A DNA stretch of 48,953 nucleotides from Nitrospira sp. (GCA_020430245.1 JAGQKG010000002.1:1-48953); one strand, 5' to 3'. Positions 27,858 to 44,720 are shown, counted from the stretch's first letter. Made by a program: numbers and translations. Notes: a model not told the origin generated them from the sequence alone.

Positions 27858-30554
27858 CTAAGGGGTATCCTGGACCAACCGGAATCCGCGACTACTGCCC
27901 CGGTCGCCGGTGGCATCCCCGTCCCGGCTTGACGCCCGCAGATTGGCGGGATTGCTGTCCCACGACCCGCCGCGCAGCACCCGCAATGAACAATCCCCGC
28001 CATCGGCTTTCAACCAGGCCGAACCATCTACTGGCGCATTGTTGTAGCTCCCATGGCTACAATCCTCCACCCATTCCCAGACATTCCCGCTCAAATCATG
28101 CAGGCCAAATGCATTCGGTTGTTTGTCACCAACCACGGCCGTGTGGTTTCCCGAGTTGGCCAGGTACACCGCATAGTCCCCAAGCTGGGATTTTTCGGAT
28201 GTGCCGGCCCAGGCCTCTTGTTTGTCCCCGCTGCGAGCCGCATATTCCCATTCTGATTCCGTCGGCAGACGATAGCCTTTGCCGGTCTCCTTGGACAGCC
28301 AGGCCGCAAAGGCCTTTGCATCGTCCCACGACACATTCATGATTGGGCGCGGCCCCCGTCTCCAGCCTTGATCACTGGGAAACTCCCGATTGGTCGCAAT
28401 GGCAAACCGGTCGTATTCTTCAAACGTGACTTCATATTTACCCATGGCAAACGGTTGAATATTCACCTCGCGAACAGGGTTCCGCCATGGCTCCCCCAGT
28501 TTCTCGACATCGCCTTGGCGAAACGTGCCGCCGGGAATAGGCACCATCTTCGGCGGCACATGAATGCTCACAACCAGGGATTGCACTTTCAATAGGGCCT
28601 GCTCGACGTCATAGCCCTTTTGCCACAGCCAGGTGACTCCACCCAACAGCAGCAGCATGACAACCCCGCCTCCCATCCAAAGCCATCTTGCCTGGCGGCT
28701 GGCTTGGAGAAATTCTTTGGTGAGGCCCCCGGCATTCGCCCCGGCTTGTTGAAAATCGTGATATTCCCGCCCCGTGGCCAACCCACTGAGCCGGGGCTTG
28801 CCCATGTCGTGCCATTTTTTGGCGCGGCTTTCCAACAGCGTACGATCCACCAGCGCTTTTTTGTGGTGCTCAACATAGAGCTTCAAGGCGGGCCAGGCCT
28901 CAAAGAGTTTTTCATGGCTGATCGAGACCGTGGCCTCCTGACCTTCGCCTTCGGTGCGGAAGAGACGTTCGGTAACCAACCGATCGATCACGGGGCGAAG
29001 GGAAACCGGAAATTCTGTTTTCTTTTGACGATTTCGGGTGGGGATGCTCTCCTCCTTCTGCACTTTGGCCAGGGCGTGAAACAGGACAGGCAACGCCTCC
29101 GCGACCTTCACGCCCAATTTGCGCTCAAGCGTATCTTCCACCTGCTTCACATGAGCGCCTATGGCACCCGTCACACCACCCAACGTATCGTACACCGTCT
29201 CGCTTAAGACCGAATCGGTGCGTTGTTGAAAGAGACGGTCCAGGACAAAGGCCAACAGCGGGAGGTTGGTCGACTCTGCTTCGGTATCATGGATAAGTCG
29301 CTTGGCGAAGGTCTCGGTCATCGTAAGACCGGCCGCCTGAGCCGGTTTCAGAATCATATCCTCCATCATGTACCCTTTGACAGGGCCGAGGGCATAATGG
29401 CCTTTGCCGTTCAGCACCTTCACCATGTCCGGATGGCGGTGACAATAGTGGAGGTGATCGCTTCGAATGGTGCCCACCACCCACAAGGCCTGCTCGCCCG
29501 CGGCCTGATACAGCGAGGATAAAAAGCGGTTGGCCAGTTCCACATCGTGGAGAGTGAAAAGTTCTTCCATTTGATCGATGAACAGCAGGAGCGTGCGGGT
29601 CGGATCGGCTCGTTTCATGATCGTCGTGATCTGCGCGCCGAGCGTGTCCGGGGCCTGGGTCAGCTCTTCCAGCAACGTATCCGGATTGAGACCTGCCTGA
29701 GTCACCAGAGCGCCGAGAGCACTTAGCATGGCCTCCAACGGCTGCTGGCGTTGACTGGGCAGCATGCGCACACGGAGACAGGACTGTCCGCCAGGAATCC
29801 CACCATTTTCCAAGATCGTCAGGAGGCCTGCATCCACCACCGACGATTTGCCGACCCCTGAGTCACCACTGATGATCATGAAACGACTGTCGGTTTCCCG
29901 CAGACGGTCCAGGATTTCACGCACCTCGGCGTCGCGGCCGAAAAACACCGGCGCAAACTTGCGTGTGAAATGGAAGAGACCGGGATACGGTGAGCCCTCT
30001 TGTTCGATATCCCAGGTGACGGTTGTCCGTTGGTCCGGTTCTTTGACTTGGAGGACTCCCGGCTCTCTCGTGTCCTCCAGATACTTTGCAACAGCCGCAA
30101 GCACAAGGGTAGATAGTTCGTGGGGAGACGAAAAGGCACTCGCCAGTTTCTCAGTCAACAAATACTGCCGTAGGGTATTGATGCGTTCGCCTTTGTCCTC
30201 TTCCGTACGGGCGTCATCGTAGGAACGAAGCCAGGCCGTGGTGTCGCTCACGACAAAGGTCAAACAGGCTTTCTTGAGGGCTTCGGCGCGGCGAAATTCC
30301 AACTCGGTGATTGACAGTTTCTTCGGGTTATCATGTGCCTCAGGGGGTACGTAGCCGTACCGAAAGGCGAACAGACCAACGTAGAGATCGGCTTTCTCGA
30401 CATCCTTGAGGCATTTTTCGACGGGCCGTTGGTCTGACGCAACATAGTCCTCCATCGCAATAACCTGGTGGCCAGCCTTTCGAAGAGCCTCGAAGACAAC
30501 CTGCCGATAGTCTTTCAGATCTTGGTAGGTGGAGGAGAGATAGATGGTCGGCAT
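27858..30554 (-). CDS. DGR target: DUF4062 - STAND-like NTPase - TM - FGE/C-type-lectin protein
   Basis: About 898 aa from the ATG at 30554 (MPTIYLSSTYQDL); the frame is open to 30623 and an ATG at 30563 is also possible. Order: DUF4062 (residues 1-90, TIYLSSTYQDLKDYR and DLYVGLFAFRYGYVP), often a signalling or effector head. Then a STAND-type NTPase with Walker A GDSGVGKSS (about 230) and Walker B LLLFIDQMEEL, winged-helix and helical parts, and one membrane helix (WLWMGGGVVMLLLLGGVTWLW, about 623-645). The end is a formylglycine-generating-enzyme (SUMF1) domain (MVPIPGGTFRQGD to GFRLVQ). Residues about 857-895 are the DGR variable repeat. The gene is intact. A ligand-sensing conflict or defence receptor is inferred from the architecture. 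Confidence 0.88.
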   Translation of the reverse strand: MPTIYLSSTYQDLKDYRQVVFEALRKAGHQVIAMEDYVASDQRPVEKCLKDVEKADLYVGLFAFRYGYVPPEAHDNPKKLSITELEFRRAEALKKACLTFVVSDTTAWLRSYDDARTEEDKGERINTLRQYLLTEKLASAFSSPHELSTLVLAAVAKYLEDTREPGVLQVKEPDQRTTVTWDIEQEGSPYPGLFHFTRKFAPVFFGRDAEVREILDRLRETDSRFMIISGDSGVGKSSVVDAGLLTILENGGIPGGQSCLRVRMLPSQRQQPLEAMLSALGALVTQAGLNPDTLLEELTQAPDTLGAQITTIMKRADPTRTLLLFIDQMEELFTLHDVELANRFLSSLYQAAGEQALWVVGTIRSDHLHYCHRHPDMVKVLNGKGHYALGPVKGYMMEDMILKPAQAAGLTMTETFAKRLIHDTEAESTNLPLLAFVLDRLFQQRTDSVLSETVYDTLGGVTGAIGAHVKQVEDTLERKLGVKVAEALPVLFHALAKVQKEESIPTRNRQKKTEFPVSLRPVIDRLVTERLFRTEGEGQEATVSISHEKLFEAWPALKLYVEHHKKALVDRTLLESRAKKWHDMGKPRLSGLATGREYHDFQQAGANAGGLTKEFLQASRQARWLWMGGGVVMLLLLGGVTWLWQKGYDVEQALLKVQSLVVSIHVPPKMVPIPGGTFRQGDVEKLGEPWRNPVREVNIQPFAMGKYEVTFEEYDRFAIATNREFPSDQGWRRGPRPIMNVSWDDAKAFAAWLSKETGKGYRLPTESEWEYAARSGDKQEAWAGTSEKSQLGDYAVYLANSGNHTAVVGDKQPNAFGLHDLSGNVWEWVEDCSHGSYNNAPVDGSAWLKADGGDCSLRVLRGGSWDSNPANLRASSRDGDATGDRGSSRGFRLVQDTP
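27870..27984 (-). repeat. DGR variable repeat (VR) at the 3' end of the target gene
   Basis: Encodes RGGSWDSNPANLRASSRDGD and then ATGDRGSSRGFRLVQDT, the final lectin-fold segment of the FGE domain. Against the TR, Asn codons have become Asp, Ser or Gly, and Asp and Thr have become Ala or Gly. Seventeen of the nineteen adenine-site changes are A to G on the coding strand and two are A to C. Three other mismatches are not at template adenines. Only four codons follow the VR-matched end before the TAG at 27858-27860. Confidence 0.9.
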
Positions 30555-30689
30555 AGCGTTCATGGAGGAAGGGTGGAGCCGGCTATGATCCGTTCCCTTT
30601 AATGGATCTATTTGCCAGAACAAGTCAAAAACCGCAACTCTTTTCTCGGAAACACGGCCCTTGAAGCCTAAGAGACCAACTCGATTAAT

Positions 30690-30747
30690 AGCGACGTTCC
30701 GGAGGAACGTCGCCTTTACTTCATCGTCATAGGAAAAGAAGTTCCGG
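30690..30747 (+). repeat. Right flanking repeat of the DGR cassette, with hairpin
   Basis: Contains the hairpin cgacgttcc-gga-ggaacgtcg (9-bp stem) and a tail (atcgtcataggaaaagaag) that parallels the left copy at 26041-26097. The direct repeats enclose the TR, RT, avd and target gene. They may be interspersed REP-like elements that happen to sit here or boundaries of a mobile cassette. From 30555 to 30856 no gene is seen. Confidence 0.7.
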
Positions 30748-30856
30748 CCAAGGCCTGACCGGCATAAGATGAGAGTGCAGTCAGAGAAAGGTTAAGATGT
30801 CAGACACTTTAAGGACACCGGTTGTCGCCTATTCAAAACAACCTCTAGCGATCGAT

Positions 30857-31390
30857 CTACAAAAGGTTCTTGCCGGTTTGGTGTTGTTCCAATTCCAACA
30901 AGGCGGTTTTGATGGGCAGTCCGCCTCCGTAACCGACTAGTTTTCCATTTGCCCCGATCACCCGATGGCACGGCACAATAATAGAGACAGGGTTTTGGCC
31001 ATTGGCGGCTCCTACAGCTCGTGAGGCCTTTGGGCTGCCGATCTGGTGAGCAATTTTCCCATACGACACGGTTCTGCCATAGGGAATAGATTGGAGAGCC
31101 TTCCAGACCTGACATTGAAAGGGAGTCCCTTGAAGGTTCAATGCGATCTGAAACCGTGTCCGGGAACCGTCAAAGTATTCCTGCAGTTGATCCAGCACAG
31201 GACGAAACGGCTCACACGATTTTGTCCATGTCGGCTGGATGTCGAGGGGGTGAGCTCCATCTTGAAACTGCAGGGCCTGCAACCCATCTGGGCTTCCCAC
31301 CAATAGAAGCCGGCCAACCGGACTTGGACTAATCCAGTAAGATATCCAAGAATCCTCGGAGGCTTGTTTGGGCACTGGTGGCTTCGCCAT
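30857..31390 (-). CDS. ogt: Methylated-DNA-[protein]-cysteine S-methyltransferase
   Basis: Suicide repair enzyme that takes the methyl group from O6-methylguanine. The C-terminal domain is typical: FQCQVWKALQSIPYGRTVSY, RAVGAANGQNPVSIIVPCHR with the acceptor Cys, then VIGANGKLVGYGGGL. I start at the ATG at 31390 (MAKPPVP), because the longer frame to 31555 would run into the divergent XRE gene and is not conserved-looking. The product of about 177 aa is normal for Ogt. The divergent regulator next door may or may not control it. Confidence 0.92.
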   Translation of the reverse strand: MAKPPVPKQASEDSWISYWISPSPVGRLLLVGSPDGLQALQFQDGAHPLDIQPTWTKSCEPFRPVLDQLQEYFDGSRTRFQIALNLQGTPFQCQVWKALQSIPYGRTVSYGKIAHQIGSPKASRAVGAANGQNPVSIIVPCHRVIGANGKLVGYGGGLPIKTALLELEQHQTGKNLL

Positions 31391-31483
31391 CTTGATCTTC
31401 ACGCTTGTAGCAGGTGAAATAGCCTGGTGTGGGACAAAAATTGAAGATGGACAGGCCCACGAACATTTTTCTATGATCGAATC

Positions 31484-31951
31484 ATGTCCATTCAGCAACA
31501 CTTGAGTCATTGGTGTCAGCACAGAGGTCTCTCTCTGGCCGACCTCAGTCAACAAACGGGAGTGCCTCTAACAAAATTACAGGATTTCCAAAAGGGAACC
31601 TGGGACCCTCCGCTTTCCACTATAGCTTTGATTGCTCAATCCTTAGATGTGCCTGAGTCCTGGCTCCATCATGATCCACGGACCCTACTGCGATTATGGA
31701 ACGACCCTGACGAGGAAAATCCGGAACTTCCGAACACCTCTTCTTCCGATCCACTATTCCAACGAATTATCCAAACCAGCCGTGACTACCAGGACCTCTT
31801 CGTCTTGCTCACAAGCCTACTTCACCACGGTGACCCCAAGTTAATTCGCGCCGCGCAGGTCAACCTCCAGAGCCTTTTCAAGCAGGTGCGCCCCACCACT
31901 GTCCCCTGGGGGTCGAGACCTCCAGGACACTTCGAACCTCCCAACGATTAA
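31484..31951 (+). CDS. XRE-family helix-turn-helix protein
   Basis: 155 aa. An N-terminal Cro/C1-type domain is clear: LSHWCQHRGLSLADLSQQTG, then LQDFQKGTWDPPLSTIALIA and AQSLDVPESWL. The C-terminal half is helical (DPLFQRIIQTSRDYQDLFVL) without a known domain; it may bind a ligand or form dimers. It is divergent from ogt. As a lone regulator with a non-canonical C-terminus its targets are unknown. No operator repeat was identified in the 93-base intergenic region. Confidence 0.78.
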   Translation: MSIQQHLSHWCQHRGLSLADLSQQTGVPLTKLQDFQKGTWDPPLSTIALIAQSLDVPESWLHHDPRTLLRLWNDPDEENPELPNTSSSDPLFQRIIQTSRDYQDLFVLLTSLLHHGDPKLIRAAQVNLQSLFKQVRPTTVPWGSRPPGHFEPPND

Positions 31952-32040
31952 CCACCCAGCCTTTCCGACCCAAAGGTCGAGTGGAGCAAAAAGAGAAGTG
32001 CCTGTTATAAAAATTGAGCAGGAACGGAAGAAAAACCGAC

Positions 32041-32409
32041 TTAATGTACCAAAACCCTTTGCACGGTTTGGAGAAGCTCATCAACAGTAAAGGGTTTTTG
32101 TAAGGTACAGATCGGCTGAAATAATTGGTGAGGGCCCTTCATCGTTCCACCAGATGCAGGAATATTTCCCGTCAGTGTAATTATCGGAATACGAGAAGGT
32201 TGTTCAGAAACTGGCCCAGTGGGTTCATCTTCTCTCTCTTCCATCGCCACCACATCCATAATAATCAGAGACGCTTGGAAGTTTTCATGATTTTGAAGGC
32301 CTTCCTGACAGGACCCTGCGGCCATGACCGTATACCCAGCTGACTCCAAAGAAAGAGAAACGGACTCCCTCACTTGGATATCATCATCTATCACCAAAAT
32401 TCTATTCAT
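32041..32409 (-). CDS. Stand-alone response-regulator receiver domain
   Basis: 122 aa, CheY-like. It has the acidic pair in ILVIDDDIQ, the phospho-acceptor in LIIMDVVAME, the Thr in IITLTGN and the Lys in LQKPFTVDELL. Two loops carry extra residues (EEREDEPTGPVSEQPS; PASGGTMKGPH), longer than in CheY. No output domain and no kinase neighbour is present, so the partner must be elsewhere. The flanking 32410-32713 region holds no supported gene. A strong aaggagg at 32595-32601 precedes only a tiny open frame of 17 codons. Confidence 0.85.
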   Translation of the reverse strand: MNRILVIDDDIQVRESVSLSLESAGYTVMAAGSCQEGLQNHENFQASLIIMDVVAMEEREDEPTGPVSEQPSRIPIITLTGNIPASGGTMKGPHQLFQPICTLQKPFTVDELLQTVQRVLVH

Positions 32410-32713
32410 TCAGTTAGCCTAAAGTTATACACCAATAAAAATACTCGTTAACATTGAAAAAGATACTGTTTTCTTGACCACATAAATACGAGCAATTTAT
32501 GTTCCTTCCAAAATCAAATTGCCTCACAAATAATTTTTCATATAAAATCAACATGTTACGCCATAAATTCAGCAATAATTTGCTGATAGACATGAAGGAG
32601 GAAACATTCAATATGCAGGGATTACCATTCACTGCTTTCCCCATACTCTCCCTGATGAACCTTTAGACAACCTGGCTGATCCTAGAGCAACCCGACCACC
32701 ACACGAAAACTCT

Positions 32714-34045
32714 TTAAGAATTTTGTAAGTGGACATTAAACCTGCGACTGTTTCTCCATAGCCACCCTAGTTGAAAACACAAGCCGGTCAGCATCGCGGC
32801 CAACCCAACATATAACCCAGTCACGTGCCCATAAAGAACCCCGGCCAGTAAGAAAATGGAACTTCCAAACAGGTACAAACAGACAGCTTGAGTAATGATG
32901 GAAGTGATCCCACGATGAACGAACTGGCCCTGAAAAAAACTTTCCCATGGACTCAAAGCGGGGAAAATTACCATGAGCCAGAGTCCTGTCGAGGCCAACA
33001 GAGTCAGCTCAGGAGTTAAAGCCGCGCCCCATTCAAACCAGAGCGTGGAGAGCGGGGTGGCAGCAATCATGAAAAGGATTCCGCTCGTACCGATTGAAAC
33101 CATGATCACAAATTTCTTCAGGTTGACCAGAAAATGCGGCCGGTCATAAAGGGCAACAACCACCTCCTGCATCGCCAATCCTCCACTCCGAAACACAAAC
33201 GAGAGGCCACCTAACACCGGCCACACAGCCAAGGACTCTATCGCGTTCGGCATCCGACTAATGGCCGCACTGACAATCGGTAAATTCCCAAGAGAAATGA
33301 GTGGAGTAAATGCGAGAGGCCAATAAAACACGCTTAATTGTTTAAGCGTGAGAGGCGATGGATGCACAGGACTCATTTTAAGATTGGCGAGGATCGGACG
33401 CACGAAAAACAAAATAAAGCCAGCCTCGACCATTGCGCCAGAAGACATCGCAACCGTGGCCACGACAATACCCGGGAAACTCTGTAAAACCAATCCGCAA
33501 AGTAAGACCGCACTGCTTACGAATAAACGGACCAGGGTTCCCAGCCCAATCAGGCGTGTCTGGCCTGCCCGGATGACCACTCCCTGAAAAAACCTTCTTA
33601 CCGCAATCGAGAGCGTCCATGGCGTCATGCATTGAAGACCGATTCTAGCCGGTTCCACAATAATATCAGGAACACCCAACACATCCTGTACGATCATCCC
33701 GTACACCGGAGTAAAGGCTACCACGACATGAACGACTGTTAGCAGACTCCCCAAAACCACAATAAAATTTCGAATAAGTTGGTAAGCCAACCAATCCTTG
33801 CACAAGGCGGTAGACGCAACCAGAATCATAATGACGGGAGCTTCGATCAACAACGAGAGAGGAAAAACCACTCCACCATAAGCTGCTAAATGGACCTCTG
33901 GATCGCTAAGACGAGAAACCGTGGCGGTGACAAGTGGAAACTCCAAACCCATGAGCATCCAGCTTGCAGCCAAAGGCCACCACATGCGGAAAATCGTGAA
34001 GAAGGGTGAAGCAGGAACGAGTAGAACCGGCGAGTTAGCAGCCAC
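32714..34045 (-). CDS. Polytopic membrane protein, MOP/MATE- or ANKH-like
   Basis: 443 aa with about twelve hydrophobic segments. The opening FRMWWPLAASWMLMGLEFPL, then VSRLSDPEVHLAAYGGVVF and SLLIEAPVIMILVASTAL, resembles bacterial relatives of the ANKH and MATE flippase/exporter superfamily, where two six-helix bundles form the transport path. The internal repeat (FYWPLAFTPLISLGNLPIV in the second half) supports two homologous bundles. Substrate unknown; citrate, pyrophosphate, drugs or lipid-linked sugars are all handled in this superfamily. No partner gene is adjacent. Confidence 0.6.
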   Translation of the reverse strand: MAANSPVLLVPASPFFTIFRMWWPLAASWMLMGLEFPLVTATVSRLSDPEVHLAAYGGVVFPLSLLIEAPVIMILVASTALCKDWLAYQLIRNFIVVLGSLLTVVHVVVAFTPVYGMIVQDVLGVPDIIVEPARIGLQCMTPWTLSIAVRRFFQGVVIRAGQTRLIGLGTLVRLFVSSAVLLCGLVLQSFPGIVVATVAMSSGAMVEAGFILFFVRPILANLKMSPVHPSPLTLKQLSVFYWPLAFTPLISLGNLPIVSAAISRMPNAIESLAVWPVLGGLSFVFRSGGLAMQEVVVALYDRPHFLVNLKKFVIMVSIGTSGILFMIAATPLSTLWFEWGAALTPELTLLASTGLWLMVIFPALSPWESFFQGQFVHRGITSIITQAVCLYLFGSSIFLLAGVLYGHVTGLYVGLAAMLTGLCFQLGWLWRNSRRFNVHLQNS

Positions 34046-34258
34046 GAACCGACAAGTGGCTCAAAATGAACATGTCTGCACAGTTTCCGACATGGTCATG
34101 AAACCTGAGACAAGGCAAAAGGACACAATCATATACAATTACATCCAGTGTATTGCTTGGGTAAGTACAGCAGAAAGTCATTCACGAAAGGGAGAGTCCC
34201 TTTCGTGAAGAGCCTACAGTATCATAAAGGCGAGCTGATCCGCCAAAAGGTTCGATTT

Positions 34259-36844
34259 TTACAAGAAAGACTTGAGAGGATTTATAGAGGGATGAGACTC
34301 GCCTCGAATCGCAGGAGTAACAAATTCCTGGTCTTCATGCCTTGCCCCTTTCGCAGAATCGGGTTCTGAAGCAAAACGGCCCGCGTGGCTTTCCTCTGAG
34401 CATTCTTCCGGAATTTCCTTTTCTTGGAGATCTTCTTGATTAACGCAAGAAGGCTTCCAGGTCGACGCTTCTATTTCACACTCTTCTCCGGGATAGAAAC
34501 GCAGTGAATCCCAATGCGTCACCCAACTCTTTACGTATTTCCGCATACTGGTTCCCGGGACTATTTGGGCCGGCCCATTTGCCGCATTTCCCCACATATG
34601 CCACCCATGCCCTTTCAGGTGAAGCGATCGAATCGTCTGATAGCTTTCTTGAATAATGTCGTTCGGTGGCTGCCCCAGGGGAATACGTTGGGACTCCAAT
34701 AAGCCCATGCCTTTCTCCGCCTTGTCGGCTAATATCCGGTCAGTCTCCGTATTCTTGGCGCGAAGTTTCTCCAAGAGTTTGACCTTATCACCTTTTTTTT
34801 CCAAGACCTCTTCTCGAAAGTCATTGGTTAATGCCAGCACAACACCCAATCCCGGCAGAGTAGGACCGCCATCTAAATTCATGAGGCGAGCCACTTCGGC
34901 ATAGGATTTGGCCCGCTGATTCACCGAATAGCGGCCAATCAATTCGGCTTCATCGATCAGCAAAATCCATCCGGCATATCCTGCGGCTTGCATCAGACGA
35001 GCAGCAAACTGAAAGCGTTGAAGCGCCAACTCTGCAGCCGATATCTTTCCAAACGCATACCGCTCACCAAACCCGGCCTCTTGCAAGTACTTTTTTAGAT
35101 CGCCGATCCCGATGGGATCTCCAGTCCAAAAGCGAGTCATTCGATGGCCTAATTCCATATCGGAGCTCAATCGTTCATACAGCATCAGAGTCGCCGCAAA
35201 CCGGGCATCAATCTGACTCTCCGGATTATTCACCCACGTAACAAGATTCTTATAGCGAGGAGCCCAGACATCACATTGACCAGCGATTTCTGAAAATACT
35301 TCCCCTCGTTTATCAGGGATGACTGCAGCTTCAATCGCGGAATAATACAGACGGACAGGGTGATACAGAGGTGTCTCTTTACTGATCACAATCCTGCTAC
35401 AGATGAAATTGGCATCCAGCGCTAGATTCTGGAGATACCCCAGGATATGCGATTTCCCACTGCCAAACTCGCCCTCGATTACCATGCCACGAGGGCACGG
35501 TCCCATAGTAATGTTTTGCTGTGTAGCTTCTAATAATCGCCGAAAGCGTCCCTCTATCTCCGGCTGGAGACATCCGAGCGCCGTCACCACATGACGATTG
35601 GGAACCCCTGCCCGAAGGCCTTCAATGACACGACGGGCTTCTTCATCAGGCACCATTCTCCTTGGTATGGCGGTGGAAGAACCCTTCTCATCTTCAGGAA
35701 CCGGCTCATGCTCATATTGAATCCTGACCAAAGAAGCCAATGGGTTCTGGCGATGTTTCGGACGAACGTCATCCCATACTCGTAATTTCAAAGCCTCGTA
35801 CCGATCCACACCACGGCGGGAATCGGTCAGAAACTCTTGTGGAGCCAATACCACCATCAGCAAACCTTCCATCTCATCAGCCGAATCAATAAATTGACGA
35901 AGCAACTCATACAAATCCATGGTGGCCGAAGGAGAAAATGACAGAGAGCCATCATTCGGCAAGGTATCCTTTTGCATAAAATACCGAGAGATATCAAGTG
36001 AGAGAATAAGGCCTCCCTGTCCGGTTAATCGAAGCCAGCGAGTTAAAGAAGACAGCATGTACCGTGCATTATGACGCGAGATTTTTTGATAAATGAGAGC
36101 CTTTTTGACTCCTGTGACAAGACGAAGGTCTCCACACAACCACTCTTTCACGGCGGTGGCCAGGACACGATCCGAATCGCCAGCATCCAACTGAGCCATG
36201 CACAGCCGGATCATCGCCATTCGAAATTCACGACACAGGCCAGAATCACCTTCAATCGATTTTTCCATCCATGTTTGAATATCCCGACGGAGCATCGGCT
36301 CCTTCCGTTCATTCAACATTGCAACCTGCCGCAACGAGAATTCTTGTCGGTCTGAAGGAATTTGATGCCCATGCTCTTCGAGCAACCTTTGGAGAAACCG
36401 ATAGGCGAGTTCATCCCAATCTATTTGTTTCGCAATTTTCTGAAACAACCGCTCGACCATGTGGGATTTGGTGTATCGCGCGTCGACTTTTGCCAACACA
36501 TACCCTTCACGTTTGGCCAGTCCCTCTAATTCCTGTTGGCAGATTTTCAATATACCTTCACCCGGAAACACCGCAACTTTGACTGCCCCCCCCCCCTCAC
36601 GAATGAAACCCCCAAGATATTCATGGTGAAGGATGCCCAACCATTCCCGAAGAGCCAGATTAAATCGTGGACTCTCCTCGGAATGAATCTTTTGCTTTGG
36701 GGATGGCCTCGAATCTAGTCGATTGGGTTGCACACAGTCCGGCTCGACCGTCCGTGAGTCATTAAGCAAAAGGGGGGAGGACGGCAGTCCCTCTTCTGTT
36801 CTCACGGACTGTAAATGATTTAAAGCCTCAATTAATTTGCTCAT
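34259..36844 (-). CDS. BrxC/BrxD-like tandem P-loop ATPase (DUF2791 type)
   Basis: 861 aa, no membrane helix. The C-terminal half is an intact AAA-like ATPase: linker RRVIEGLRAGVPNRHVVTAL, Walker A GEFGSGKSH (about 457-465), VISKETPLYHPVRL and Walker B GWILLIDEAELIG (about 626). The N-terminal half repeats the pattern in decayed form: FIREGGGAVKVAVFPGEGIL where a Walker A would be, then GQGGLILSLDISRYF and LYELLRQFIDSADEMEGLL. This suggests a fused, catalytically dead copy. The last about 90 residues are acidic and disordered. The ATG has aagga upstream. BREX partners (pglX, pglZ, brxL) are absent within the window. It follows a DUF6499-like gene. Codons 83-86 hold an 11-G run. Confidence 0.75.
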   Translation of the reverse strand: MSKLIEALNHLQSVRTEEGLPSSPLLLNDSRTVEPDCVQPNRLDSRPSPKQKIHSEESPRFNLALREWLGILHHEYLGGFIREGGGAVKVAVFPGEGILKICQQELEGLAKREGYVLAKVDARYTKSHMVERLFQKIAKQIDWDELAYRFLQRLLEEHGHQIPSDRQEFSLRQVAMLNERKEPMLRRDIQTWMEKSIEGDSGLCREFRMAMIRLCMAQLDAGDSDRVLATAVKEWLCGDLRLVTGVKKALIYQKISRHNARYMLSSLTRWLRLTGQGGLILSLDISRYFMQKDTLPNDGSLSFSPSATMDLYELLRQFIDSADEMEGLLMVVLAPQEFLTDSRRGVDRYEALKLRVWDDVRPKHRQNPLASLVRIQYEHEPVPEDEKGSSTAIPRRMVPDEEARRVIEGLRAGVPNRHVVTALGCLQPEIEGRFRRLLEATQQNITMGPCPRGMVIEGEFGSGKSHILGYLQNLALDANFICSRIVISKETPLYHPVRLYYSAIEAAVIPDKRGEVFSEIAGQCDVWAPRYKNLVTWVNNPESQIDARFAATLMLYERLSSDMELGHRMTRFWTGDPIGIGDLKKYLQEAGFGERYAFGKISAAELALQRFQFAARLMQAAGYAGWILLIDEAELIGRYSVNQRAKSYAEVARLMNLDGGPTLPGLGVVLALTNDFREEVLEKKGDKVKLLEKLRAKNTETDRILADKAEKGMGLLESQRIPLGQPPNDIIQESYQTIRSLHLKGHGWHMWGNAANGPAQIVPGTSMRKYVKSWVTHWDSLRFYPGEECEIEASTWKPSCVNQEDLQEKEIPEECSEESHAGRFASEPDSAKGARHEDQEFVTPAIRGESHPSINPLKSFL
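36586..36596 (-). repeat. 11-base G tract (C on plus strand) inside the ATPase gene
   Basis: A homopolymer of eleven G on the coding strand, spanning Glu-Gly-Gly-Gly-Ala near residues 83-86. It is in frame here. Poly-G tracts of this length slip during replication and cause on/off phase variation in other bacteria; a change of one base would end the protein early. Confidence 0.9.
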
Positions 36845-36954
36845 TGTGCAGTTCCTTCCCCATGGACATCCTGAGGTTTTCAGATTTTCAACACTTCATA
36901 CTTGATTCATGACCATGCAAATTCTCTGACAGGCTTCCAAATCCTTGAATACCC

Positions 36955-37695
36955 TTATACAGGAAAATGCACACTGATTTGGCAGGCACGTTTATACAAT
37001 TGATTGACTCGCGCTTCGCATATTTCATCATCCTGAAGATTGAATAAGGTCCGCCCGATTTCCTGAAACGGCACACCGAGATCCACGGCATCCAACACGC
37101 GGAGATACATCGGCCATTCATCACGACATTTTCGCCGTTCGAGATTTCGACCCACTTGATGCTTTTGCCACTCCATTAGATCTGATTTGACTTTTTCCAC
37201 TTGACCCAACAACGGCTTTTTCAGATCAAATACGGCCGCCATTCGCCATTCCGACAAACACAAAGTCACCTCCTCCCCTCCTCCCAGCCAATCCGGTCCC
37301 TGTCCGAAATAGATCCGACCGTAATTCGAATCAAATGACAACATCCAGGGCTTGGAGATGGCGGGATTAGGAAGCCCACTGAGATGGTATTTTTCTAATG
37401 AATTCGGCATTCGAGCTTTAAACGCTGGATGATCGGGCATGAAAACTTTTTTACGATATCGGGTAGGATACTGAGGATCTTTGGCACAGGACAGATCAAA
37501 ATCATATGTTTGCAGGTAATGTTGCTCCCAATCCTTTCGATAATCCGCACGCCGACGGAGAAACTCCCACCGCCAAAATGTATCGTTTAAACCCTGGGGG
37601 GAAGGATAGGTATCCTCCATCTTCCAATTGGGAACGACCCCTAACACTTGGGGATGACCTTGTGTTTCCTTGGGCGGTCGCTTACTACTCGACAT
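36955..37695 (-). CDS. DUF6499-like putative regulator, partner of the BrxC/D-like ATPase
   Basis: About 246 aa from the ATG at 37695, preceded by an excellent aggagg nine bases away. The longer frame to 37722 lacks such a site. The N-terminal part contains WRWEFLRRRADYRKDW, the hallmark of the transcriptional-regulator-like DUF6499 domain. The C-terminal part, KPLLGQVEKVKSDLMEWQ and EWPMYLRVLDAVDLGVPFQE, resembles the DUF2285-type region often attached to it, and could be a helix-turn-helix. The assignments are by remembered patterns. The ATPase gene starts 110 bases downstream on the same strand, so the two probably form a unit. Confidence 0.6.
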   Translation of the reverse strand: MSSSKRPPKETQGHPQVLGVVPNWKMEDTYPSPQGLNDTFWRWEFLRRRADYRKDWEQHYLQTYDFDLSCAKDPQYPTRYRKKVFMPDHPAFKARMPNSLEKYHLSGLPNPAISKPWMLSFDSNYGRIYFGQGPDWLGGGEEVTLCLSEWRMAAVFDLKKPLLGQVEKVKSDLMEWQKHQVGRNLERRKCRDEWPMYLRVLDAVDLGVPFQEIGRTLFNLQDDEICEARVNQLYKRACQISVHFPV

Positions 37696-38565
37696 CTCGA
37701 AGGACCTCCTAGCCGGGAGCATTCAAGGGTAGATCATAGGGAATAGGTGCTTGCTGGCAGGAAGATAACCAAAGACAGGAATCCCGGCTTACGCCACATT
37801 CCAACAAACAACCTCAAGCCCGCAGGCACTCAGGAATACTGATACCCCGTCAAAAAAAAGAATTGCGTCGATTCTTAAACTACGGCACGACCAATAGAGG
37901 CAGGCGTCGGAAGGGGAGATGAAGGATTTTCATTCATGATGAGGAGAACAGGTTTTGCGCCTTGACCAAGACACTCCATGGACCCATCCAAACCAGGAGA
38001 GCACCGTCACGCAGCAAGCTAAAGCAATCATGGCCAAAACAAAACAAATTTTCCCTAACATGTTGAAGACCCCCACGAAAGCGGTTCTTCATTCCTGCCA
38101 ATACTTTCTGTATCGGCAGAGTATTTAAAGGGCTTTACTAGATGGCTAGAAAAACATACCCTTTCTTTAAGAAAATAACTCCAAATATTCTACAAAACAA
38201 TGGGCAAGACTTGCCTCTCGTTAAATTCATTTTTTTCATATACAACAATAATTATTTTTGGCCGATCAACCTTAAAATTAACTGCATATACTCTATAACT
38301 ATTTGTTTTTATTTACTAAAATTCACGTTTGAATTTAAGTCGACAACCCTCTCCAAAGCTAATATTCACGCTCCAGCTAAGGCTTTAAACGGATCAATAC
38401 CCCCCTTTCAGCTGAAAAGTAATGGAAAATCTTACAAAAAACACAGCCCAGTTGGGTGTTGCCCCCTCATCGGTTGGGTTGGGATTGGATTAGAAACCTA
38501 AAAACGAGCCATGGAGACAATTCTCTTTAAGAATCAACACCTTGGAATAGAAGGAACCGAAAGCT
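37696..38565. other. Long intergenic region upstream of the ATPase unit
   Basis: About 870 bases with no gene that I can firmly support. It becomes strongly AT-rich from about 38100 to 38350, with poly-A/T stretches. It should contain the promoter of the DUF6499/ATPase unit and that of the RluE gene in the opposite direction. Confidence 0.5.
37930..38061 (-). CDS. Possible 43-aa single-helix membrane peptide
   Basis: A short frame from ATG at 38061 reads a hydrophobic helix (KICFVLAMIALACCVTVLSW) followed by a basic, Cys- and His-containing tail ending KTCSPHHE. A G-rich stretch (gtgggggt) upstream is a poor ribosome-binding site. It may be a small membrane protein or chance. Confidence 0.28.
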   Translation of the reverse strand: MLGKICFVLAMIALACCVTVLSWFGWVHGVSWSRRKTCSPHHE

Positions 38566-39267
38566 GTGAAATCCTTACGACAAGGACCACCAGAGATCTC
38601 GAATTTCTTCATCGGATTTGATTCCACCGAAAAATTAGCCATGCTTGACTTCAAAAAATCGGTTACAAGAGTAAGGTCTTCTCGTTTGGCACAAGGCAGC
38701 GTCATCCTATTCCATAAGCCCAAAGGGTATCTGGTGACTCGAAAGGATGAGAGGGAGAGAAAGACAGTCTATCATATCCTACCGCCTTTCCTATTGCGCG
38801 AAGGCTGGGTACCAATCGGCCGATTGGACAAGGACTCCCGTGGCCTCCTCCTCTTCACTCAAGATGGAACATTGGTTGACCGGCTCACAGAGCCAGGCGG
38901 ATGCGACAAAACCTATGAGGTTGAGATCCGGGGAAGAATTTCAGACGATGACTTATCCCGGGTGTTGCAGGGAGTTTCCACTTCCATCGGAATATTAAAA
39001 GTACACAGGGTTACAAAAAAAAGAGAAGTCGGGCCCAAAACACAGCTAGAGGTCATCTTACAGGAGGGGAAGAACCGGCATCTCCGTCGGATCTTTCATG
39101 CCCTGAAAGATCCAAAATTTCATACGCCACTCAAAGTTCTCGATCTCAAACGCGTACAAATCGGGCCTTTGGCCTTGGATATCCCCGTAGGAACATGGAG
39201 ATTTTCAACACCCGACGAGGAGATGCAATTGTTGGCTATTTTCAAAATACCAAGACATCGGGGTTGA
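38566..39267 (+). CDS. Pseudouridine synthase, RsuA/RluE family without S4 domain
   Basis: Isomerises uridine in rRNA (RluE acts on 23S rRNA). The catalytic motif GRLDKDSRGLLLFTQDG carries the essential Asp. Other family motifs are ILFHKPKGYLVTRKD, DKTYEVEIRGRIS and EGKNRHLRRIF. There is no N-terminal S4 domain, as in RluE. A GTG at 38566 opens the frame; the ATG at 38641 (MLDFKKS) is an equally likely start and would remove 25 poorly conserved residues. It is convergent with glnS, with 19 bases between stops. Confidence 0.88.
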   Translation: MKSLRQGPPEISNFFIGFDSTEKLAMLDFKKSVTRVRSSRLAQGSVILFHKPKGYLVTRKDERERKTVYHILPPFLLREGWVPIGRLDKDSRGLLLFTQDGTLVDRLTEPGGCDKTYEVEIRGRISDDDLSRVLQGVSTSIGILKVHRVTKKREVGPKTQLEVILQEGKNRHLRRIFHALKDPKFHTPLKVLDLKRVQIGPLALDIPVGTWRFSTPDEEMQLLAIFKIPRHRG

Positions 39268-39286
39268 CCCCCTGATGAAAGAACTC

Positions 39287-40975
39287 TCACTTCTTTTCAA
39301 TTTTCGCCCATGTATCTCGAAGAGGTACCGTCCGGTTAAACACCAAACGATCCCGAGTAGAATCCGGATCAAGACAAAAATATCCCTGCCGCTCAAACTG
39401 AAACCGACTACCTGATGGCACTCCGTTGAGACCGGGTTCGACCTGGCAATCAGACAACACAGTCAAGGAATGTGGATTGAGCAGGTGGTGGAAGTCCTGA
39501 GAGTCACTCACCAAACCTGGATTCGGTTGAGTCAACAAGGCCTCATACAGTCTTACTTCGGCAGGAAGGGCATGCTGAGCAGAGACCCAGTGGAGAGTCC
39601 CTTTCACCTTTCGACTTGATTGACTCCCGCCACTTTTCGTTTCAGGATCGAAAGTACATCGTAAAGCCGTCACTTTCCCGGTTTCGGGATCCTTCTCGAC
39701 ACCGATACAGCGAATAATATAGGCGTAGCGCAGACGTACTTCCTGCCCTGGAGATAAGCGAAAAAACTTTTTAGGTGGATCTTCCCGGAAATCGTCTTGT
39801 TCAATATACAGCTCACGAGAAAAAGGGATTTCCCGTTTGCCTTGAGTAAGATCTTCAGGATTATTGATCGCTTCTAAGACCTCAACCTGCCCATCCGGAT
39901 AATTTTCAATAATGACTTTCAGAGGATGCAATACCGCCATCACCCGTGGCGCCGACCGGTTCAAATCTTCTCGAATAGCATGCTCCAACAGAGCCATTTC
40001 AATTACACTGTCACGTTTCGCCACCCCCACCCGCTCACAAAAATTTCGAATCGCTTCAGGGGTGTAACCCCGACGCCGAAGCCCTTTCAAGGTGGGCAAC
40101 CGAGGATCCCCCCACCCGTCCACATGGTTTTCTTCCACCAACTGGTGCAGTTTGCGTTTACTCATCACAGTATGCCCGAGATTCAAACGGGCGAATTCTA
40201 TTTGCTGGGGATAACACGAAACCTCACAGACCCGAAGCAACCAATCATATAAGGGACGGTGATCCTCAAACTCCAGCGTACACAACGAATGAGTAATGCC
40301 CTCCAATGAATCGGAAAGAGGATGCGCAAAGTCATAGGTTGGATAGAGGCACCAGTCATCACCAGTCCGATAGTGCGTGGCATGTCGAATACGATACAAG
40401 GTAGGATCTCGCAGATTCATATTAGGAGAGGCCATGTCAATTTTGGCCCGCAATACATGGGCCCCGTCCTCAAATTCTCCAGACCGCATTCGAGTAAATA
40501 AGGCCAAATTTTCTTCAATGGTACGATTGCGGTACGGGCTATCCTTCCCTGGCTCAGTCAGCGTCCCTCGAAAAACCCGGATCTCCTCGGCCGTTAAACT
40601 ATCCACATAGGCATGGCCGGTTTGAATCAGTCGCACCGCGAATTGATACAGCTGCTCAAAATAGTCTGAGGCAAAAAAGAGGCGATCATCCCAATCAAAG
40701 CCCAACCACCGAACATCTTCCTGAATTGAAGAGACATATTCCATGTTCTCCTTGGTCGGATTCGTATCATCGAAACGAAGATTACACAGCCCACCGAATT
40801 CCTGGGCAATACCAAAATTCAAACAGATGGATTTCGCATGACCAATATGTAAATGCCCATTAGGTTCAGGGGGAAAACGGGTATGCACTCGTTTGCCAAT
40901 AGTCTGGTTTTCCAAGTCTGCCATAACCTTGGCTCTGATAAAATCGATCGTAACATGTTGGTCTGGTGACGACAT
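39287..40975 (-). CDS. glnS: Glutaminyl-tRNA synthetase
   Basis: Charges tRNA-Gln directly. The 562-aa chain has the class I signatures [12 protein letters not shown] (HIGH) and VMSKRKL (KMSKS-equivalent), the acceptor-binding region and the C-terminal anticodon-binding barrels ([21 protein letters not shown]). Length and motifs are those of bacterial GlnS. The ATG at 40975 (MSSPDQH) is preferred to the in-frame TTG at 40984. Bacteria with GlnS need not use the GatCAB route for Gln. Confidence 0.96.
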
Positions 40976-41690
40976 AATGAACAAGCTTTCAGAAAATTAA
41001 ATAAAAAAAACTTCCAGTGACTCGCATCTTCAAAACAAGCCTCGGGCTGTTTGATTCCCGTTTCTAGGCATAGAGAATGTCCGAAAAGGTCCGAGGACGG
41101 CCTTTCCTAACAACTTTTCCAAACGACCTGTGGGTTATTCGCCAGGCGTGGAGAGTACAGTTGCCCCCACGCTACCATGAGTCGCGCCAACTCTCAACAC
41201 GAGCAAGACAATATTCGATCCTTGAGAGTTAAACCCGTCAAACCGGATCCAGCCAGTGAAGGCATGAGCGCCGCAACTCTCAAGAATAACAGGCATAACG
41301 GCTAGAGAAAAAATGAGGATCCCAATCTGCAGTCTTCTCTTGGTTCGGATCTCAGGAAAGAAATGAAGAATCCCTTGTTTATGGCGCAGGGGTAAATTCA
41401 ATCCGGCGTCCGGAGACAGATTGGCAAGCCCCCAGTATTTAATCGATTCGTATGGTGGATTCGAATCAAGAACCTTGGATTGGCGCATGGAAGGGATGAC
41501 AGGGAGTGAAAAGCACTTCAATGCCCTTCAGGAGAGTCATTCCCTATTGCATGTATTGGAGATGAGGGGGAGGAATAGAAAAAACGGCTACCAGCTGACG
41601 GACCGCAACCGGATTTTAGGAAAAGGTTTTGGTATACACAAAATTCTGACGCACAGAGACTCCATCTTTGCCCACTGCAGCCGGTTTTCC
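40976..41690. other. Gap without a supported gene
   Basis: About 715 bases. A 128-codon minus-strand frame (41135-41521) and short plus-strand frames look like chance or decayed coding sequence: none shows a family motif or ribosome-binding site. A gattcgaatc near 41460 is reminiscent of a tRNA T-loop, but no acceptor or D arm can be built around it. Confidence 0.45.
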
Positions 41691-42293
41691 CTATGGGGCT
41701 GCGCCCTTCTCTTTTGGCCCTTTCGAGCCTTCCTCATGGTTCGCGTTCAACTCAGCGAACTCCGATCCCTTCGCAGCTTTCGATTCGCCACCCTCGTCCT
41801 GACCCTTTTTCAATTGCCTGGCCCACAGGTTGGGCTGACAAACAAGGTGAAAGTTTGGAGCAGGGACGGAATCATCAATGCGCCATAACTCAAGTTCAGC
41901 GCCATAGAATGTCACTTCATCACGGGAAACGCCATTCAGCCAATCCAAAGTTTGGCGAATCTCCGCAGAAATACTCTGGGCCACACACACCACCGTCTTC
42001 GCATCGAGGCCCGCAGCATACATAATCAGTTTACCCAGCGCGTCGGGATCAATGCCCTCCAAGTGACCCAACACAATCACGCAACTCCCAGTTTTCGAAT
42101 CTTTGGCGAGGACGCCTCCGGCCAAAATACTGAAAGGAATGTCACTCCCAGCCGGCTTGAGGGGGCGCTCGATCGTCTCCCCCAATATGTCTAAAATTTC
42201 CTCCTGCTGAAGCCATGAAGCAAACCCGTCGGCCTCATTTCCCCACACTTCACTTAAATTTATTTTTCGAAGTTTTCCAACTGGTTTTGCCAT
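41691..42293 (-). CDS. DUF4268-like / PD-(D/E)XK-related protein, short form
   Basis: 200 aa. The pattern WGNEADGFASWLQQEEILDI, then GKLIMYAAGLDAKTVVCVAQ, RQTLDWLNG, YGAELELWRI and APNFHLVCQPN resembles proteins with a nuclease-like N-terminal domain annotated as DUF4268. In those the middle contains an E-N-Q type element before the helix; here it reads CVIVLGHLEGIDPDALG, so the catalytic Glu/Gln appear changed. The C-terminal about 45 residues are low-complexity and charged. Function unknown; it may be a binding relative of a restriction-type nuclease. Confidence 0.65.
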   Translation of the reverse strand: MAKPVGKLRKINLSEVWGNEADGFASWLQQEEILDILGETIERPLKPAGSDIPFSILAGGVLAKDSKTGSCVIVLGHLEGIDPDALGKLIMYAAGLDAKTVVCVAQSISAEIRQTLDWLNGVSRDEVTFYGAELELWRIDDSVPAPNFHLVCQPNLWARQLKKGQDEGGESKAAKGSEFAELNANHEEGSKGPKEKGAAP

Positions 42294-42578
42294 AACAACC
42301 TCAACCGCAAAAAATTATTGTTTTCTGCTTACTATTCCAATGAGACGTACTAGTCTTATCGACAGGTATTCAAAAAAGTTAAGACAAAAAACACAAAAGG
42401 CACCACCTCCCCATGAACAGAGTCATACCTCGTCATACCGACCGACAACAACACGACCATTTACCGGGAAGACTTCATCCAAAATGCCCGCTGTCCTGAG
42501 CCATCCCTGGATTTTCCGGTTTCAATCAGATCAATAGTCTGGCAAGATATTCACGTAAAAAAAATTACCTACTGATTA

Positions 42579-42606
42579 TTGATCTTTCTTCAAATTAGAG
42601 TACAAT
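42579..42606 (+). promoter_or_regulatory. Candidate sigma-70 promoter for the lipoprotein gene
   Basis: TTGATC (42579-42584) and TACAAT (42601-42606) are separated by 16 bases, a near-consensus pair, in an AT-rich upstream region. A leader of about 130 bases would follow before the ATG at 42743. No other gene is seen in 42294-42742. Confidence 0.45.
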
Positions 42607-42742
42607 AGATTAAGTTCATTCACGCGTGAATTGGTCCTCGTACCCCATTCAACCCCTTCTCCAGATTCGAAAACCCCTCTGGAACGAGGGACCAAAAGGA
42701 TGGACAGCAGGTGTTTCCCAACTTTAACAGGAGGTTTCTGCT

Positions 42743-43009
42743 ATGAATCGATTATCCCTAGTAGGGCTGAGTCTCGTCTGTGCGCTTGGACTGATGGCTT
42801 CCCTCTCAGGGTGCGGGGAAACGGAAGGTCCTGCCGAAAAAGCTGGGAAGACCCTTGATCAAGCGGCAGAAAAAACAACCGAATCCGTCAAAGACGCGAT
42901 GAAAAGCACAGAGGAAGCCATGGACAACGCGGCCGAAAAAACCGGAGAAGCCTTCAACGAGGCCATGGAAAATACAAAAAAAATGGCAGAGGATACTGCG
43001 AAACATTAA
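42743..43009 (+). CDS. Small lipoprotein with an amphipathic Lys/Glu/Ala repeat
   Basis: 88 aa. A signal peptide with lipobox LSGC (Cys about residue 28) is followed by a long amphipathic helix of repeated 11-residue-like units (DQAAEKTTESVKDAMKST, DNAAEKTGEAFNEAMENT). The mature part resembles apolipoprotein- or LEA-like helices in small envelope lipoproteins. It probably lines the periplasm or outer membrane and may be stress-linked; the exact role is unknown. A good ribosome-binding site (acaggaggt) precedes the ATG. Confidence 0.8.
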   Translation: MNRLSLVGLSLVCALGLMASLSGCGETEGPAEKAGKTLDQAAEKTTESVKDAMKSTEEAMDNAAEKTGEAFNEAMENTKKMAEDTAKH

Positions 43010-43259
43010 AGAGTGTAACCTTAACTCATGTCTCTTGAGAGTGCCTGAAACCCTCAACAAGGTTTCCGGCTCGTGCTGACAACGGCCGGTAGGAGAGGGG
43101 GTAAAAGATTTCATCTCCCTTTTTTTCAGAAGGGAGGTGAATGAGTTTGAACAAAAACGGCACCTTCAACACTGATAACCAAGGGATGATCCGGAAATAA
43201 GGGAAAGGTGAGTCCCATGGCTCACACAACCCATTTAACAAAGAGGAAAACGAGACCTG

Positions 43260-43787
43260 ATGGTCGATAAGTGGGTAAAAACGATCATAGCCCTCTTAGC
43301 CCTCCTTTTTGCGCTCTCAGTAGGCAGTCCTTCCGTACGTGCGGAAAACAAGTGGGGGCTTGGAACGGATATCGGTTTCCTGTCAGGTACCACCGACGAC
43401 ACCGTGTTCACGCTCAGTTTCCAGGGAGACTATTTTCTCAACTCACAAGCCTCTGTTGGCCCACAACTCTTGTTTTCTCCCGCCGGAGACCTCACTCAAG
43501 TCACCTTCGCCGGAATCGGTCGGTATCACATTCCCCTCGGTGCTGTCACCATCATTCCATTTGGCGGAATTGGGTTTGTCTATGCAGATTTGGAAGAAGG
43601 CCGTCGTGATGACAGCGATGTCAGTTATAGCTTACCTTTTGGGGCTACCGCAGCCTTCAAGATCAATCGGACCGTTGATCTATCAAGTACACTCATATTT
43701 ACATTCCAAGATATTGAACTGAATAATCGGAAAAGTAGCGACAATTTCAACATCGGTATGTTATTCGGCTTTCGATTCCAACCCTAA
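43260..43787 (+). CDS. Outer-membrane beta-barrel-type protein
   Basis: 175 aa, with a signal peptide (IIALLALLFALSVGSPSVRA) followed by alternating beta strands: GLGTDIGFLSGTTDD, SFQGDYFLNSQASVGPQLLF, VTIIPFGGIGFVYADLEEG, and a final aromatic-ended strand GMLFGFRFQP. This matches small eight-stranded barrels (OmpW/OmpX/Ail class or outer-membrane-like DUF proteins) placed in the outer membrane. No ligand can be deduced. It follows the lipoprotein gene on the same strand, 250 bases apart, so they may be co-regulated. Confidence 0.72.
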   Translation: MVDKWVKTIIALLALLFALSVGSPSVRAENKWGLGTDIGFLSGTTDDTVFTLSFQGDYFLNSQASVGPQLLFSPAGDLTQVTFAGIGRYHIPLGAVTIIPFGGIGFVYADLEEGRRDDSDVSYSLPFGATAAFKINRTVDLSSTLIFTFQDIELNNRKSSDNFNIGMLFGFRFQP

Positions 43788-43937
43788 TACCCTCACACCA
43801 CCATTTAAGACGGCAGGCGATCGTACTGTTGGATAACCATCACCGTGGCAACGGACGTGCTCAAAGGGGTTAGAAGAGAGTACTCCCACAATAGACGAAT
43901 TGATGCGTTCACGTCGTGTGAAGCTGCCCGAAACTTG

Positions 43938-44492: not shown

Positions 44493-44720
44493 GATCCTAC
44501 GGTAAAGATTGACGGAGTAAGGCCAAACAAGATGAGGTGGTCTACCGAAAGTTCCCGTGCCCTGTCAAATAACTACTTTGCGTACAACGTGATCACACCG
44601 ACTCCATTGACCACTCCTTACACAATTCCCTTGTCCGGGCTTGTCTCCCACACAGGAGTTTTGGTATCCCAATTGTGAGAGACCACCGAAATGCCATCCT
44701 AAGCCTCATCCTGCTCACCC

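What the first reader, a model, noticed from the sequence alone, without database searches (positions are those of the whole stretch)
34259..37695. Orphan two-gene unit: DUF6499-like protein plus BrxC/D-like tandem ATPase
An 861-aa ATPase with an intact C-terminal P-loop domain of BrxC/D (DUF2791) type follows a DUF6499-like protein in the same direction. No methylase, PglZ phosphatase or Lon-like protein is within about 10 kb on either side. This looks like a stand-alone system that borrowed the BREX motor, possibly a defence or DNA-control module.
Basis: partly seen in the sequence, partly recalled or inferred. Interest (0 to 1): 0.72.

Follow-up and report, generated by a model that had tools for sequence, protein, structure and literature searches.

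The report
Fixed Nitrospirales relative of phage-defence ATPases
A Nitrospirales bacterium carries, in its ordinary core chromosome, a two-in-one ATPase related to motors of the anti-phage systems BREX and Shango, in which one half has lost its ATP site but kept the motif that would complete the other half's site, together with a regulator and a tiny membrane protein; it looks domesticated rather than like a mobile defence system.

Summary
In detail: an intact 861-aa tandem ATPase (34259-36844, minus) follows an intact regulator-like protein (start 37695). Pfam confirms BrxC/BrxD (2e-31); PF20109 is sub-threshold but recurs in all orthologues, with a RovC-type DNA-binding C-terminus in four of twelve. 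No PglZ was found in the genome.

The gene is not an orphan: two fused paralogues sit about 35 kb away, next to a 297-aa protein. It is not mobile: orthologues lie in the same core neighbourhood across the genus, and dN/dS (0.10-0.14) resembles the neighbouring GlnRS gene. It is neither BrxD nor Shango: the N half groups with the first ATPase, and the C half with the second, of a four-gene operon (hypothetical-ATPase-ATPase-BrxHI-like helicase). Nitrospirales lost the helicase, fused the ATPases and duplicated them.

(2) A conserved 43-aa membrane ORF lies upstream. (3) An FseA-box-like inverted repeat occurs wherever the regulator does (17/17 loci) and is absent from three loci without it.

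Biological function is unproven; defence is possible but not favoured.

The parts
34259..36844 (-). Tandem AAA+ ATPase (861 aa): N half about 60-398 is a pseudo-ATPase, C half about 399-800 an intact ATPase; conserved N-terminal peptide MSxLIxALNRLQ
   Evidence: PF10923 2e-31; alignment of 22 homologues; motif counts
36955..37695 (-). Regulator-like protein (246 aa from the conserved start): DUF6499/Trans_reg N-terminus with RWEFLRRR, RovC/DUF2285-like C-terminus LRVLDA
   Evidence: Arg57 and Asp211 invariant in 12 orthologues, at the places of FseA Arg37/Asp210 (PMC10359603)
37930..38061 (-). Small ORF, 43 aa (MLGKICFVLAMIALACCVTVLSWFGWVHGVSWSRRKTCSPHHE), predicted single-pass membrane protein by inspection
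   Evidence: Found in every upstream-complete orthologous locus examined, exactly 43 aa in g1/g7 and 42 aa in g5; dN/dS 0.05-0.10
38094..38120 (-). Inverted repeat TCTGCC-N15-GGCAGG, candidate operator of the regulator
   Evidence: 17 of 17 loci with P0002 have it (spacer 15-18, arms also exchanged to CCTACC/GGTAGG), 3 of 3 loci without P0002 lack it; the only match of CTGCCGATA-N4-14-GGCAGG in the genome, control 0
38111..38137 (-). TAAAG-N15-GCCGATA, sigma-28(FliA)-like promoter element, tentative
   Evidence: Fixed spacing in all 17 loci; flagellin of a congener has TCAAG-N14-GTCGATAC; spacing is 1 bp longer than the FliA consensus; genome-wide pattern not enriched
32714..34045 (-). 443-aa membrane protein, conserved downstream neighbour in g1, g5 and g7; membership in the unit uncertain
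   Evidence: Synteny; no Pfam match
32041..32409 (-). Single-domain response regulator, conserved next neighbour; probably not part of the mechanism
   Evidence: PF00072 1.5e-9; synteny

Best explanation
This is a chromosomally fixed, lineage-specific descendant of a helicase-loader-like ATPase pair. An ancestral operon (A protein, ATPase-1, ATPase-2, BrxHI-like helicase) lost its helicase in these Nitrospirota. ATPase-1 lost its P-loop, the two ATPases fused, and the fusion was duplicated; one copy (this one) settled about 35 kb from the others and, in two genera, took up an FseA/RovC-type regulator. Mechanism: P0001 works as an ORC/Cdc6-like AAA+ dimer in one chain with a single ATP site. 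ATP binds the C half (Walker A K464, Walker B D631/E632), and the N half, which cannot bind ATP normally, supplies the trans-acting arginine(s) of the RRGVDRYEALKLR motif, in the same or a neighbouring chain. The ATP state would switch its grip on DNA or on a partner. P0002 binds the inverted repeat ahead of the unit and controls its expression. The 43-aa protein is a likely membrane partner. Shown by sequence: gene order, losses, fusion, conservation, complementary motifs, co-occurrence of repeat and regulator. Inferred: the composite site, DNA binding, autoregulation, membrane link and a cellular rather than defensive role.
For: Complementary motif loss: N halves P-loop 0/26, Walker B glutamate 0/26, RGxxxYxALxxR 20/26; C halves 26/26, 26/26, 0/26 (alignment). 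Tree: C halves with ATPase-2 of the four-gene operon (96/91), N halves on the other side with ATPase-1, SngB and BrxD. Unfused A-N-C precursor genes in sister genus g2 and family f21. Homologues in all 21 genomes of the genus, two or more copies each; the orthologue itself in 18, the three others being 66-84% complete. Same core neighbourhood in independent MAGs and a complete genome. dN/dS 0.10-0.14. Inverted repeat present in 17/17 loci with the regulator, absent in 3/3 without, and built like the FseA box: inverted hexamers 15-16 bp apart (PMC10359603). BrxD is classed as an ORC-Cdc6 AAA+ ATPase and proposed as a loader of BrxHI (PMC12839542).
Against: The arginine-finger assignment rests on motif position, not on a structure; the AlphaFold models were poor (pLDDT 40 and 48). 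N and C sit on long branches, so their placement with ATPase-1/ATPase-2 may be partly attraction (tree warnings). Homology of protein A to the four-gene operon's 279-aa protein is weak (hhalign E 0.0024). Loss of the repeat and of the regulator is one evolutionary contrast (g1/g7 against g5), not three. Every characterised relative is an anti-phage component.
Confidence: 0.6

Rival explanations
1. A stand-alone anti-phage system: P0001 is a fixed immune ATPase that senses or remodels invading DNA, with P0002 as its regulator.
For: PF10923 relatives with known roles are BREX type-2 BrxD and Shango SngB, both in anti-phage systems (PADLOC BrxD 2.6e-26, SngB 2.4e-11; PMC10250203). The four-gene relative in Aulosira lies directly after a BREX-2-like set on a conjugative plasmid.
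Against: No effector (nuclease, methylase, phosphatase, helicase) beside it; core and syntenic in the genus instead of patchy; ordinary purifying selection; no defence island and no mobile borders.
Confidence: 0.22
2. A motility-regulon gene set: the unit is transcribed by sigma-28 and serves flagellar or surface behaviour.
For: TAAAG-N15-GCCGATA with fixed spacing in all 17 g1/g7 loci; sigma-28 consensus TAAA-N15-GCCGATA (PMC5200910, PMC4183435); FliA in all g1, g5 and g7 genomes tested, flagellin in 20 of 21 g1 genomes.
Against: Spacing is one base longer than the consensus and than the genus's own flagellin promoter; not found at g5 loci or ahead of protein A; pattern not enriched genome-wide (7 sites, reversed control 12); the -10-like part overlaps the inverted repeat, which alone could explain part of its conservation.
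Confidence: 0.15
3. A remnant of an integrated mobile element: P0002 is an excision or transfer regulator and P0001 an element ATPase.
For: PF20109/DUF2285 regulators are mobile-element regulators in proteobacteria (PMC10359603); a P0002 relative (35% identity, E 1e-15) sits beside a D5-type primase and a phage integrase in a congener.
Against: No integrase, primase or attachment-site-like border beside the unit; conserved at one place between GlnRS and membrane-protein genes across the genus and, without P0002, in genus g5.
Confidence: 0.05

Closest known systems
BREX type-2 BrxD (NF033438, PADLOC BrxD)
   Same: ORC/Cdc6-type AAA+ ATPase; both halves of P0001 are BrxD-like by profile
   Different: 93.9 bits against a cut-off of 350; two fused domains, one dead; no BrxHI helicase, PglZ, PglX, BrxC or PglW beside it; no PglZ in the genome
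Shango SngB (SngABC: TerB protein, ATPase, helicase)
   Same: PF10923 ATPase; P0001 has a weak SngB match (2.4e-11)
   Different: No TerB protein and no SngC helicase; SngB is single-domain with both motifs. True Shango exists in other Nitrospirota (L119: SngA 1e-69, SngB 4e-180, SngC 4e-272)
Unnamed four-gene operon, hypothetical 279-282 aa, ATPase-1, ATPase-2, BrxHI/SngC-like helicase (Desulfomonile pDESTI.01, Aulosira plasmid3, Nitrospirota G286)
   Same: Same order A-ATPase-1-ATPase-2; C halves group with ATPase-2; ATPase-2 likewise lacks the finger motif
   Different: Helicase missing in Nitrospirales; ATPase-1 there still has its P-loop; ATPases separate
FseA / RovC regulators (DUF6499 + DUF2285)
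   Same: Same domain order, WEFLRR motif, Arg-Asp pair conserved, inverted-hexamer repeat upstream
   Different: Sub-threshold Pfam scores; single ORF without the frameshift; sits before an ATPase, not before rdfS; repeat overlaps a promoter-like element instead of preceding it

Membership tests
BREX type-2 BrxD | Sequence over the curated BrxD cut-off | tested here: not met
   93.9 bits against 350
BREX type-2 BrxD | Encoded with PglZ, BrxHI helicase and other BREX genes | tested here: not met
   No PglZ in the genome; none of these among the window ORFs or neighbours of orthologues
PF10923 ATPase superfamily (BrxC/BrxD) | Pfam profile over the gathering score | tested here: met
   109.8 bits against 22.2
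Shango | TerB protein + SngB + SngC helicase in one operon | tested here: not met
   No such neighbours in the window or at C199; SngB match only 2.4e-11
Four-gene operon (A, ATPase-1, ATPase-2, helicase) | ATPase-1 and ATPase-2 side by side after protein A | tested here: inconclusive
   Met at the paralogous and unfused loci; protein A homology weak; P0001 itself has P0002 or nothing in A's place
Four-gene operon (A, ATPase-1, ATPase-2, helicase) | BrxHI-like helicase downstream | tested here: not met
   Absent at all Nitrospirales loci read; only weak helicase matches (23-29% identity) elsewhere in the genome
FseA/RovC regulators | DUF6499 N-terminal domain with AWEFLRRN-like motif | tested here: met
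   RWEFLRRR invariant; PF20109 in 12/12 but under the cut-off for P0002 itself
FseA/RovC regulators | DUF2285 (RovC_DNA-bd) C-terminal domain | tested here: inconclusive
   4 of 12 orthologues, best E 0.0028; key Asp invariant; fold search with a poor model gave nothing
FseA/RovC regulators | Binds an inverted-hexamer repeat | not testable with these tools
   A repeat of matching build is present and co-occurs with the gene; binding needs an experiment
Sigma-28 regulon | TAAA-N15-GCCGATAA ahead of the first gene | tested here: inconclusive
   TAAA-N16-GCCGATA in 17/17 loci, but spacing +1 and no genome-wide enrichment

The most novel reading that the evidence does not exclude
A helicase-loading ATPase pair of anti-phage type has been domesticated in Nitrospirales: reduced to a single composite ATP site (pseudo-ATPase half giving the finger, live half giving the P-loop), fused into one chain, triplicated, tied to a 43-aa membrane protein and put under an FseA-like regulator and possibly sigma-28, to serve a cellular task such as motility or chromosome or surface organisation.
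Probability: 0.25. Interest if true: 0.7.

Novelty: new variant of a known kind. Interest (0 to 1): 0.5.

Why it matters
If right, it shows an anti-phage-type motor turned into a core cellular component, with the intermediate steps (separate genes, P-loop loss, fusion, duplication, helicase loss) still visible in living relatives. It also offers a simple way to test how BrxD/SngB ATPases, whose role is unknown, divide labour: here one half should bind ATP and the other should only complete its site. The FseA-like regulator with its own inverted repeat extends a family described as proteobacterial to Nitrospirota and to a non-mobile gene set.

Tried and rejected
AlphaFold of P0001 and P0002 with the permitted shallow alignments: pLDDT 40.5 and 48.5, unusable; Foldseek of the P0002 model: nothing. 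PDB sequence search with P0001, P0002 and protein A profiles: nothing relevant. P0002 homologous to protein A: rejected (hhalign E 0.67). Rfam for 30000-45000: nothing. The inverted repeat as an RNA hairpin: not excluded, but the arms alone are conserved, the interior is not, and it tracks the regulator. Sigma-28 as firm fact: reduced to a tentative lead after the genome-wide count. Phage homologues: none. Literature for DUF2791 or a BrxD pseudo-ATPase: none in the library.

Full report
CHECK OF THE OBSERVATION. The two ORFs are real and intact. P0001 is 34259-36844 (-), 861 aa; P0002 is the ORF 36955-37722 (-), whose start conserved in orthologues is 37695. P0001 matches PF10923 BrxC_BrxD at 2e-31 (109.8 bits, cut-off 22.2), NCBIfam BrxD at 93.9 bits (cut-off 350, so not BrxD), and PADLOC BrxD 2.6e-26 and SngB 2.4e-11. 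P0002 matches PF20109 below its cut-off (E 8e-4), but all 12 orthologues match it (best 7.9e-5), and four also match PF10074 RovC_DNA-bd. PglZ was not found in the own genome, which is 88% complete.

IT IS NOT AN ORPHAN. The own genome holds a second PF10923 locus on contig C199: a 297-aa protein (A), then two ATPases of 758 and 774 aa, each with the same two-domain build as P0001, then a histidine kinase and a response regulator (named by eye). In the complete relative G253 the two loci are about 35 kb apart on one chromosome. The genes between them match the window's genes in order, so the window's left part runs toward the C199 locus. All 21 genomes of the genus have at least two homologues. 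The orthologue of P0001 itself is seen in 18; the other three are 66-84% complete.

IT IS CORE, NOT MOBILE. In 15 further Nitrospirota loci the neighbourhood is largely the same as far as the contigs reach: GlnRS, pseudouridine synthase, P0002, P0001, 443-aa membrane protein, response regulator and so on (G253). dN/dS against five relatives is 0.10-0.14 for P0001 and 0.11-0.16 for P0002, against 0.08-0.11 for GlnRS. No phage record matches, and plasmid matches are distant BrxD/SngB-type proteins.

WHERE IT COMES FROM. In sister genus g2 (L055-L057) and family f21 (L058, L060) the genes are separate: protein A (about 265 aa), an N-half ATPase (about 320 aa) and a C-half ATPase (about 420 aa). 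Desulfomonile, Aulosira and Nitrospirota genome G286 have a four-gene operon in the order hypothetical protein of 279-282 aa, ATPase-1, ATPase-2, helicase; the Desulfomonile and G286 helicases match BrxHI and SngC. A tree of 63 ATPase domains puts the C halves with ATPase-2 of Desulfomonile and Aulosira (96/91) and the N halves on the other side with ATPase-1, SngB and BrxD. The tree program warns of long branches, so this agrees with, but does not prove, the orthology suggested by gene order. Protein A resembles the 279-aa protein over its last about 156 positions only weakly (hhalign E 0.0024). No helicase lies near the Nitrospirales loci read, apart from an HrpB-like one (named by eye) 7.5 kb downstream on C199; the Desulfomonile helicase finds only 23-29% matches elsewhere in the genome. 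Reading: helicase loss, P-loop loss in ATPase-1, fusion, then duplication.

THE TWO HALVES ARE COMPLEMENTARY. In 26 N halves the P-loop pattern occurs 0 times and the Walker B glutamate 0 times, while RGxxxYxALxxR occurs 20 times. In 26 C halves the counts are 26, 26 and 0. SngB and ATPase-1 keep a P-loop together with an RG-type motif, SngB in full and ATPase-1 in full or in part; ATPase-2 of the four-gene operon has a P-loop but not the motif. [quoted passage not shown] That it is the finger is inference. The simple reading is one ATP site per N-C pair, bound by the C half and completed by the N half.

THE REGULATOR. P0002 has the DUF6499-DUF2285 order of FseA. Its Arg57 (WEFLRRR) and Asp211 (LRVLDA) are invariant in 12 orthologues and correspond to FseA Arg37 and Asp210, whose contact is needed for activity (PMC10359603). 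P0002 occurs only in genera g1 (16 of 21 genomes) and g7. A relative (35% identity, E 1e-15) lies beside a D5-type primase and an integrase in a congener, so the family is mobile-element-borne here too. Genus g5 keeps the ATPase in the same place without P0002.

TWO UNANNOTATED FEATURES UPSTREAM. (a) A 43-aa ORF (37930-38061, -) lies upstream in all the orthologous loci examined, g5 included (42 aa there), with dN/dS 0.05-0.10. It is hydrophobic, then basic: a likely single-pass membrane protein by inspection. (b) An inverted repeat CCTGCC-N15-18-GGCAGG (38094-38120 here) is present in all 17 loci with P0002, some of which are one genome held in two collections. In one locus it changes on both sides to CCTACC/GGTAGG. 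It is missing from the three g5 loci without P0002. The FseA box consists of inverted hexamers 15-16 bp apart (PMC10359603). The motif CTGCCGATA-N4-14-GGCAGG has a single match in the genome, control 0. This makes it a good candidate operator, with the caution that the contrast is one evolutionary event.

SIGMA-28. The same stretch reads TAAAG-N15-GCCGATA with fixed spacing in all 17 loci, close to the FliA consensus TAAA-N15-GCCGATA (PMC4183435, PMC5200910). These genomes have FliA and flagellin. But the spacing is one longer, the genome-wide pattern is not enriched (7 against 12 in the control), and the element overlaps the repeat. It is kept as a tentative lead only.

VERDICT. It is best read as a domesticated, lineage-specific derivative of the BrxD/SngB-type ATPases, not as a stand-alone defence island. 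Its biochemical scheme is testable; its biological task is not established. The structure predictions were too poor to help.

Noticed in passing
window 26467-26587 and 27864-27984, with ORFs 26429-27058 (-) and 27858-30623 (-): Looks like a diversity-generating retroelement: two 121-base copies at 80% identity, with the differences mostly at A of the template on the coding strand, a reverse-transcriptase-like ORF (YVDD) and a 921-aa DUF4062/AAA/FGE-like target ending in the variable copy; a possible Avd-like ORF at 27264-27626 (family names by eye). The stretch is absent from G253 between the same flanks.
   Followed up: partly
L071:9165-14591, L074:6145-11539, L118:4765-10171: Unnamed four-gene operon (279-282-aa protein, two PF10923 ATPases, BrxHI/SngC-like helicase) in Thermodesulfobacteriota, Cyanobacteria and Nitrospirota, once directly after a BREX-2-like set: a candidate defence system between Shango and BREX type 2.
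   Followed up: partly
L119:6141-12233: A complete Shango system (SngA 1e-69, SngB 4e-180, SngC 4e-272) in a Nitrospirota genome of family f2, distinct from the finding.
   Followed up: yes
L009:2498-8255 (contig C199): Three-gene locus with protein A (297 aa, no Pfam family) and two fused N-C ATPases, followed by a histidine kinase and response regulator; conserved across much of the family.
   Followed up: partly
L088:1918-8370: Integrated element in a congener with a 342-aa P0002 relative, NrS-1/D5-type primase and tyrosine integrase.
   Followed up: partly
L058:3-937: Two further small genes (188 aa and at least 123 aa, no Pfam family) follow the unfused A-N-C genes in family f21; the first also appears to follow them in L056.
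   Followed up: no
window 4394-5851: Transposase fragments (IS3-like by eye), broken reading frames.
   Followed up: no
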